Source of the DNA: Neoarius graeffei
Taxonomy: Eukaryota > Chordata > Actinopteri > Siluriformes > Ariidae
Length of the DNA: 64,000 nt
Assembly (NCBI RefSeq): GCF_027579695.1
Contig: NC_083583.1
Location: 21,146,099 to 21,210,098, forward strand
Direction of reading: 5' to 3'
How positions within the stretch are numbered: the first letter of the stretch is position 1; every line of letters begins with the position of its first letter. Position numbers and translations under genes: made by a program. The notes beneath the pieces were generated by a model. The model did not search any database and was not told the DNA's origin. It saw nothing but the letters and a program-made list of their open reading frames with translations. This document shows positions 54,701 through 59,456 of this stretch, piece by piece.

Positions 54701-57700
54701 GTGTAAATTGTTTTAGAGTCTTTAGACTATGCAATGTGAGACAATATGAGGTGAAATTCACATCAATCAAGCAAAAGTAATGGCTCTTTAAAATGTCTAG
54801 GTGACAAAAATAACTAAATCAAAGACTATAGGGTGTAATCACTCACTGCTCATGAACTGAGGCACTTGCCATTAAATCATAACAGATATTTTAACCCAAT
54901 TAATGCAATTTGTGGGCCTTTCACACCCTTTCTATTCTGTTTCACCATATTGACAATTGTCAGAGCTTGAGTCTGAGCTTTTCTGAGGGCAGCACGGTGG
55001 TGTAAGTGGTTAGCACAGTCGCCTCACAGCAAGAAGGTTCTGGGTTCGAGCCCAGTGGGGGCCTTTCTGTGTGGAGTTTGCATGTTCTCCCCATGTCTGT
55101 GTGGGTTCCCTCCTGGTTTCCCCCAAAGATATGCAGTTAGGTTACTATGGGACAGCCTTGGCTTTTTTTTGCACCATTCTGTGTAAACTCTAGAGACTGT
55201 TGTGTGTGAAAACCCCAGGAGATGAGCAGTTTCTGAAATACTCAAACCAGTCCATCTGGCACCAACAGCCATGCCACAGTGAAAGTCACAGAGATCACAA
55301 TTTTTCCCCATTGTAATGTTTGAAGTGAACATTAAGATGTCTGTGAAGATTCTCAGGTCATCCAGGTCATGGTAAACTGTGGGTGGTAAAAGAGAGCAAC
55401 TGGACTTGCTTGAAGATTCTTGAAGACGTTTCACCGCTCATCCGAAAGGCTTCTTCAGTTCTGTCTGACTGGTAGGAAGCATCAGGTATTTATCCTCTCA
55501 TGGATGAAAAGCTCATCTAAGGGGTCATTGAGTCATCCTGTTGGTGTGGGTCACTGGGGGCTGGTGGTGAACAGCCTCGAGAGTCGTTAGGATGATCAAT
55601 GGATTGCCCGTTAGGGTGATCAATGGAATGCTGATTCTCTCTGTCCTGTGCGTCACTGAAAACAGCTGGGTTTTGGTGTGCATTCAGTTGTCTGGGAAGT
55701 GTGCCAAGGACTGCATTGTAGGTGGCTGATAAATGATGTCTTAGACCCCCACCTCTGCTCAGTGATGGCTGATCCAGGTTGACAAAAATGGCTTCTTTAA
55801 CTCCTCGCTCATACCAACGATCCTCTCTGGCTAAAATGCGTACGTTGCAATCCTGAAATGAGTGTCCTTTGTTGTTAAGATGAAGGTAGACAGCAGAGTC
55901 CTGGCCTGAGGAACTGGCTCTCCTGTGTTGAGCCATGCGCCTGTGAAGCGGTTGTTTTGTCTTCCCAATATACGAGTCCGTGCATTCCTCACTGCACTGA
56001 ATGGCATACACTACGTTGTCCTGTTTGTGTCTGGGTATTCTGTCCTTAGGGTGGACCAGTTTCTGCTTCAGAGTGTTACTGGGTCTGAAATGTACCGGAA
56101 TGTTGTGTTTGTAGAAGATCCTCCTGAGTTTCTCAGATAGACCAGAAATGTAGGGAATGACAATGTTCTTGCATTTGTTCCTGTTATCCTCCTTGTCCGT
56201 TCTGTTCCTTTTTCTGCTCTTGAGGAAAAACCAGTTGGGATACCCGCAGTTCTGAAGTGCTTTCTTGATGTGATTCTGCTCCTTCTCTTTTCCCTCTATC
56301 ATTGCAGGGATATTCTGAGCCCTGTGTTGCAAGGTCCTAATGACCCCCAATTTGTGTTCCAGTGGGTGGTGAGAGTCAAAGAGTAGGTACTGGTCTGTGT
56401 GTGTGGGTTTCCAGTAGACCTCGATGCTCAGGCTTCTGTCTTGTCTAATGTGTACATCACAATCCAAGAAGGCTAGATTATTCCCACTGACGTCCTCCCG
56501 AGTTAAGTTGATGTTAATATCTTCTGCATTGATGTGCTCAGAGAAGGCTTCCACCTCATGGGTTTTGATTTTAACCCAGGTGTCATCCACATATCTGAAC
56601 CAGTGGCTGGGAGCAACTCCTGAAAAAGTGGTGAAAGCTTTATGTTCCACTTCCTCCATGTAAAGATTGGTCACAATAGGGGATACCGGTGAGCCCATGG
56701 CGCATCCATGCTTCTGTCTGTAGAAACTTTCATTAAACTGGAAATAAGTGGTAGTCAGGCAGAGGTCAAGCAGGGTGCAAATCTGGTCTGTGGTGAAAAC
56801 CTGCATTCCCACCACAGAAGCAGTTGAATCTGTTAGAAAACGACTCCTTCGAGACAGCACCTTATTGGATAGAACGAACCTCACCACAGACCAGATTTGC
56901 ACCCTGCTTGACCTCTGCCTGACTACCACTTATTTCCAGTTTAATGAAAGTTTCTACAGACAGAAGCATGGATGCGCCATGGGCTCACTGGTATCCCCTA
57001 TTGTGGCCAATCTTTACATGGAGGAAGTGGAACATAAAGCTTTCACCACTTTTTCAGGAGTTGCTCCCAGCCACTGGTTCAGATATGTGGATGACACCTG
57101 GGTTAAAATCAAAACCCATGAGGTGGAAACCTTCTCTAAGCACATAAATGCAGTAGATATTAACATCAACTTCACTCGGGAGGACGTCAGTGGGAATAAT
57201 CTAGCCTTCTTGGATTGTGATGTACACATTAGACAAGACAGAAGCCTGAGCATCGAGGTCTACCGGAAACCCACACACACAGACCAGTACCTACTCTTTG
57301 ACTCTCACCACCCACTGGAACACAAATTGGGGGTCATTAGGACCTTGCAACACAGGGCTCAGAATATCCCTGCAATGATAAAGGGAAAAGAGAAGGAGCA
57401 GAATCACATCAAGAAAGCACTTCAGAACTGCGGGTATCCCAACTGGTTTTTCCTCAAAAGCAGAAAAAGGAACAGAACGGACAAGGAGGATAACAGGAAC
57501 AAACGCAAGAACATTGTCATTCCCTACATTTCTGGTCTATCTGAGAAACTCAGGAGGATCTTCTACAAACACAACATTCCGGTACATTTCAGACCCAGTA
57601 ACACTCTGAAGCAGAAACTGGTCCACCCTAAGGACAGAATACCCAGACACAAACAGGACAACGTAGTGTATGCCATTCAGTGCAGTAAGGAATGCACGGA

Positions 57701-59456: not shown

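What the first reader, a model, noticed from the sequence alone, without database searches (positions are those of the whole stretch)
55336..58301. Inverted Penelope-like dimer integrated as one unit
Two copies face outward with about 5 percent protein difference but share one outer 13-bp duplication, so they entered together. The two partial ORFs are open to GIY-YIG on both strands. The 3-kb near-palindrome may also form hairpins and dsRNA within the clcn4 intron.
Basis: partly seen in the sequence, partly recalled or inferred. Interest (0 to 1): 0.7.

Follow-up and report, generated by a model that had tools for sequence, protein, structure and literature searches.

The report
Head-to-head Penelope retrotransposon pair, one insertion
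Two mirror-image, truncated copies of a Penelope-like retrotransposon sit in an intron of a chloride-transporter gene and entered as one unit, apparently because each of the two cut DNA strands primed its own copy; the arrangement is known for this group, but this case helps tell two proposed mechanisms apart.

Summary
55336-58301 holds two outward-facing, 5'-truncated Penelope-like (PLE) copies whose shared arms (1,418 and 1,421 bp) differ by 24 substitutions and one 3-bp indel, flanked by an exact 13-bp duplication. Another copy of the host Tc1-like repeat, at 42833-43121, reads across the joined flanks with the duplicated stretch once: an empty site, so the pair entered as one unit. No internal duplication was found.

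Neither arm can be a plain copy of the other: the right has about 82 bp more at its 5' end, the left a 43-bp 3' tail that the right lacks. Most likely both strands were cut, each primed its own cDNA, and the truncated cDNAs were joined head-to-head. The two ends lie 46 and 89 nt past GAAACGTC; an anole PLE's commonest start in vitro lies 82-89 nt past it. Fold-back self-priming fits poorly. Arm differences look neutral (18 nonsynonymous, 3 synonymous), so the templates were near identical.

Head-to-head arrangement, optional tail and duplication are published PLE features. Hairpin folding is predicted; no function is shown. The own-genome search did not complete; this is one locus.

The parts
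55323..55335 (+). left copy of the 13-bp target-site duplication AAGTGAACATTAA
   Evidence: exact direct repeat; present once, with two mismatches, in the empty-site paralogue
55336..56796 (-). left PLE copy, 5'-truncated: later part of the RT domain, GIY-YIG region, 3' pLTR-type end with tail
55336..55378 (-). 43-bp 3' tail present only in the left copy
56797..56880 (+). 84-bp spacer: 2-3 unassigned bases, then the 5' excess of the right copy in sense orientation
   Evidence: continuity of the + frame; no Pfam match of its own; homology to PLE RT by recall only
56799..58301 (+). right PLE copy, 5'-truncated, with tail-less 3' end
58302..58314 (+). right copy of the 13-bp target-site duplication
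55177..55335 (-). one part of the older Tc1-like repeat that was the target (HTH remnant in the frame 55024-55437; its Pfam matches are below cut-off)
58302..58439 (-). the other part of the same interrupted repeat
42833..43121 (+). uninterrupted paralogue of that repeat: the empty target site

Best explanation
A Penelope-like element cut both strands of an older Tc1-like repeat 13 nt apart, leaving 3' overhangs. Each free 3' end primed its own first-strand cDNA on PLE RNA: the left end from a distal internal start site (giving the 43-nt tail), the right end from a proximal one. Both cDNAs stopped 1.4-1.5 kb upstream, and were joined head-to-head with 2-3 unassigned bases; fill-in of the overhangs made the duplication. 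Shown: the anatomy, single outer duplication, empty site, unequal ends, no terminal complementarity for one fold-back route, neutral pattern of arm differences. Inferred: two primings, the cut geometry, joining by repair, and whether one RNA or two served. Afterwards it is probably inert: both copies start past the first catalytic motif of the RT (motif placement recalled), so neither encodes a whole enzyme.
For: One exact 13-bp duplication at the outer ends only and an empty site. The left arm has a 43-nt tail absent from the right, the right arm about 82 nt absent from the left, so neither could be copied whole from the other. For the right-arm-first fold-back, the primer end agrees with what pairing needs at 0 of the last 4 and 2 of the last 12 positions. 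The ends lie 46 and 89 nt after GAAACGTC; in the anole element PAc the commonest start, +111-118, lies 82-89 nt after the same block, and the paper reports two start sites whose spacing is the 30-40-bp tail, with both strands cut and extended in vitro (PMC11167929). Coding differences: 18 nonsynonymous, 3 synonymous; P of 3 or fewer synonymous is 0.085 at omega 1, 0.0023 at 0.5, 3e-5 at 0.3, so the arms were near identical at insertion.
Against: One locus only. The two 5' truncation points lie within 84 nt of each other, which independent cDNAs do not predict. The proximal PAc start was placed by me from an AC-rich run; PAc has three such runs after the block (10-mers with at least 9 A/C starting at 26-27, 42-47 and 80), and the first has no counterpart here. 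AC content at the two ends here is not unusual within the arm (percentiles 79 and 62). Rfam shows no hammerhead, so the anchor GAAACGTC is a motif match only. The cut sites do not both show the ATT motif that PAc prefers (left end reads ACATTAA, right end TTCACTT). No other copies of the family could be compared.
Confidence: 0.7

Rival explanations
1. Self-priming / fold-back: one cDNA or antisense transcript folded back on itself and was copied, giving the second arm.
For: Proposed for head-to-head Penelope elements of Adineta vaga from palindromes at their junctions (PMC3846280 Discussion); near-identical arms with a short spacer resemble a fold-back.
Against: Right arm first: the copy could not carry the 43-nt tail that the right arm lacks. 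Left arm first: the copy could not carry the right arm's 5' excess. No complementarity at the needed primer end for the right-first route; no further inverted repeat of 13 nt or more at the junction (shorter ones not scanned for).
Confidence: 0.13
2. A ready-made inverted dimer elsewhere was copied and inserted as a unit, or reverse transcriptase jumped from a sense to an antisense RNA.
For: PLEs often lie in tandem or inverted multimers, and multi-copy transcripts are proposed (PMC11167929; PMC3846280).
Against: Both outer ends fall near the spacings of PLE start sites, which one long read-through RNA would not give at its far end (inference). No second locus could be examined, so this is weakly tested.
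Confidence: 0.1
3. Two separate insertions, the second landing beside the first.
For: The arms differ at 1.7% of sites.
Against: Single outer duplication, none found inside, empty site spans both; differences are neutral in type, as expected from decay after a joint insertion.
Confidence: 0.03
4. Assembly or library artefact (palindromic read).
For: Near-perfect inverted repeats can arise this way (general knowledge).
Against: The arms differ in substitutions, an indel, tail and 5' extent, and a target duplication with an empty site is present.
Confidence: 0.01

Closest known systems
Poseidon from Anolis carolinensis (PAc), PMC11167929 (text parts 1-3 of 4 read)
   Same: RT plus GIY-YIG element; two internal RT start sites whose spacing is the genomic tail; GAAACGUC block at a matching distance from the commonest start; both strands cut and extended in vitro
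   Different: PAc is full length and in tandem; its block belongs to an active hammerhead; here both copies are truncated and inverted, Rfam finds no hammerhead, and no activity was tested
Penelope elements of Adineta vaga such as Pen2a_Av, PMC3846280 (passages and Discussion read)
   Same: inverted pLTR head-to-head with the main copy; tail optional on one of the inverted ends; duplications of 9 and 10 bp; an empty allele was used there to prove transposition of a pLTR-flanked host gene (8 bp)
   Different: in Pen2a one copy is near full length and the inverted part is a 181-bp pLTR; here both arms are 1.4-1.5 kb; some copies there have no duplication; the authors favoured self-priming
L1 twin priming (recalled, not tested)
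   Same: the second target end primes reverse transcription in the opposite orientation
   Different: there one RNA is covered once; here 1.4 kb is present in both arms, so the same stretch was copied twice

Membership tests
Endonuclease-containing Penelope-like elements | reverse transcriptase domain | tested here: met
   RVT_1 E 1.3e-7 and 1.1e-7, above cut-off, in both arms, profile positions 91-168 and 92-170 of 205 only
Endonuclease-containing Penelope-like elements | C-terminal GIY-YIG endonuclease | tested here: inconclusive
   Pfam GIY-YIG 19.5 and 19.3 bits, E 0.0012 and 0.0014, below the cut-off 22.6, at the expected place in both arms; the structure job was interrupted and the tool then switched off
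Endonuclease-containing Penelope-like elements | optional 30-40-bp 3' tail on one of two inverted ends | tested here: met
   43 bp on the left copy only; description
Endonuclease-containing Penelope-like elements | short target-site duplication | tested here: met
   13 bp with an empty site
Endonuclease-containing Penelope-like elements | pLTR-ORF-pLTR unit | tested here: not met
   both copies are 5'-truncated and keep only the 3' end; 5' truncation is described as usual for PLE insertions, so this speaks against an intact element, not against origin
Endonuclease-containing Penelope-like elements | hammerhead ribozyme in the pLTR (common; its mutants still inserted in vitro) | tested here: not met
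   no Rfam hammerhead at E up to 1 in 3.8 kb or up to 10 in 181 bp of the right copy; GAAACGTC block present
Endonuclease-containing Penelope-like elements | sequence kinship with named PLE families | not tested
   no relative in the two collections searched; own-genome search unanswered; assignment rests on the features above and recalled PLE protein motifs

The most novel reading that the evidence does not exclude
The dimer is a genomic footprint of two-strand target-primed reverse transcription: two PLE reverse-transcription events, one per cut strand, starting at the two alternative internal start sites. The familiar PLE form (one long copy, an inverted pLTR, a tail on one end) would then be the lopsided outcome of the same reaction, and self-priming would be unnecessary.
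Probability: 0.6. Interest if true: 0.55.

Novelty: new member of a known kind. Interest (0 to 1): 0.38.

Why it matters
How PLEs integrate, and why they so often lie head-to-head, is left open in the two mechanism papers used here (self-priming proposed in 2013; both-strand extension in vitro with later steps unproven in 2024). A locus with an empty site and arms that differ at both ends argues against simple self-priming for that event and gives a rule that can be counted across genomes: tail status and 5' extent should vary independently between the two arms. For its host gene it is probably ordinary intronic sequence.

Tried and rejected
Two separate insertions: rejected on the single duplication and empty site. 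Fold-back: rejected for this locus in its simple forms. Two different active source copies: the expected excess of synonymous differences is not seen. Gene-conversion patches between arms: no departure from even spacing (KS P 0.16; longest gap P 0.41). CpG decay: 7 of 24 differences have the CpG-to-TpG/CpA form, 4 lost in the left arm and 3 in the right, while CpG columns are 56 of 1,421; the P value printed there is biased, because a column counts as CpG if either arm has it, so it is not used. Open frames as a sign of selection: rejected, since 21 coding changes leave no stop with probability about 0.5. Hammerhead by Rfam: none (only chance-level snoRNA matches). Relatives: none confirmed in viral contigs or genome contigs. 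PDB sequence search with the right arm: none at E up to 1. Composition at the ends as a sign of AC-rich start sites: not unusual within the arm.

Full report
What is there. Between 55336 and 58301 lie two outward-facing copies of a Penelope-like element. Aligned in sense orientation, the shared arms (55379-56796 reversed; 56881-58301) differ at 24 of 1,418 ungapped columns (18 transitions, 6 transversions) plus one 3-bp indel. Both keep an open frame (470 and 471 aa stop to stop) with RVT_1 above the Pfam cut-off and GIY-YIG below it; the aligned proteins are 96% identical. Both copies start past the first catalytic motif of the RT (placement recalled), so neither encodes a whole reverse transcriptase.

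One insertion. The outer 13-mer is exact on both sides; of 12 window matches at up to two mismatches none falls inside the dimer. The self-comparison of the window (60 longest rows shown) gave a better proof: 55177-55335 and 58304-58439 match adjoining parts of one repeat at 42833-43121, at 81% and 73% identity. With the flanks joined, the alignment runs without a gap across the junction, and the paralogue has this stretch once, with two mismatches in the 13-mer. The repeat resembles the start of a Tc1-like transposon (HTH matches below cut-off; identity partly recalled). So the target was an older repeat and the whole 2,966 bp entered it at once.

Unequal arms. The left copy carries 43 bp beyond the right copy's 3' end. 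The right copy carries about 82 bp beyond the left copy's 5' end, which with 2-3 unassigned bases makes the 84-bp spacer. An arm copied from the other, on DNA or antisense RNA, cannot hold sequence that the other lacks at the far end; in either direction one of the two extras stays unexplained. For the right-first route the junction also lacks the needed complementarity (0 of the last 4 positions, 2 of 12). Later loss of the tail or of the left arm's 5' end by deletion is not excluded, but would have to stop exactly at the duplication or at the junction.

Match with in vitro data. Frangieh et al. 2024 (PMC11167929, parts 1-3 of 4 read) report that an anole PLE cuts and extends both target strands and starts reverse transcription at two internal sites, the sequence between them being the genomic tail. 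In their printed RNA the GAAACGUC block ends at +29, so the commonest start, +111-118, is 82-89 nt further on. In the window the right copy ends 46 nt and the left copy 89 nt after the same block. 10-mers with at least 9 A/C start at 26-27, 42-47 and 80 in the anole RNA; with at least 8 they start at 36-40 and 80 in the left copy. That the middle anole run is the second start site is my placement, and the first run has no counterpart here. Within the arm the AC content at the two ends is not remarkable (percentiles 79 and 62).

Origin of the arm differences. Of 21 coding differences 3 are synonymous. Neutral change predicts 30% (P of 3 or fewer 0.085); purifying selection in separate active lineages predicts more (P 0.0023 at omega 0.5, 3e-5 at 0.3). 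The differences therefore arose mostly after insertion from near-identical templates: one source, or even one RNA used twice. Seven have the form of CpG decay, four in the left arm and three in the right. They are spread evenly.

Surroundings. The pair lies in an intron of a minus-strand CLC-3/4/5-type gene: an exon within 58518-58766 and further CLC matches at about 53.4-51.5 kb. 'clcn4' is plausible but untested. A transcript through the intron could fold into a long hairpin (predicted -2,866 kcal/mol; 1,398 of 1,418 left-arm positions paired with their cognate within 3 nt; longest perfect run 217 bp). Editing or processing to small RNA is possible in principle; nothing here shows it.

What is known. 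PMC3846280 (passages and Discussion) calls head-to-head the most frequently observed inverted arrangement of Penelope elements, describes the tail as optional on one of the inverted pLTRs, and reports duplications of 8-10 bp, though some copies have none. Its authors inferred self-priming from palindromes at the junctions. Here the junction shows no further inverted repeat of 13 nt or more, and two-strand priming fits better. In eight paper searches (listings only, capped, plus the passages and sections cited) I saw no paper that reads a genomic head-to-head PLE pair as the product of two-strand priming. Subscription papers and preprints are outside that library, and two PLE papers asked for by id were not held.

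Limits. The own genome could not be searched, no relative was found elsewhere, and the structure job failed. The reading rests on one locus and a comparison with one characterised element. The closeness of the two truncation points remains unexplained.

Noticed in passing
1746-5790 and 8009-12052: A 4-kb direct duplication, 96% identical; the first copy holds a seven-transmembrane receptor match (7tm_1, E 4.3e-44, about 3309-4067). The second copy was not scanned. Neighbouring 6708-8002 and 12059-13384 are 94% alike.
   Followed up: partly
59226-59256: A 33-column match (88%, E 0.004) to the block around GGATGAG..GGTGAAAC of the PLE 3' end, possibly a decayed remnant of an older copy.
   Followed up: no
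about 48163-49062 and 46791-47201: Transposase remnants of Tc1/Sleeping Beauty type on the minus strand: HTH_SB, HTH_Tnp_Tc3_2 and DDE_3 above cut-off in the first, weaker matches in the second (coordinates derived from protein positions).
   Followed up: no
13203-13562, 18178-18550, 45906-46283, 53959-54332; partial copies at 7828-8002 and 54987-55144: An interspersed repeat of about 370 bp, 79-98% identical between the copies listed.
   Followed up: no
56797-56880: The two copies were truncated within 84 nt of each other after about 1.45 kb; independent cDNAs would not predict such closeness.
   Followed up: no
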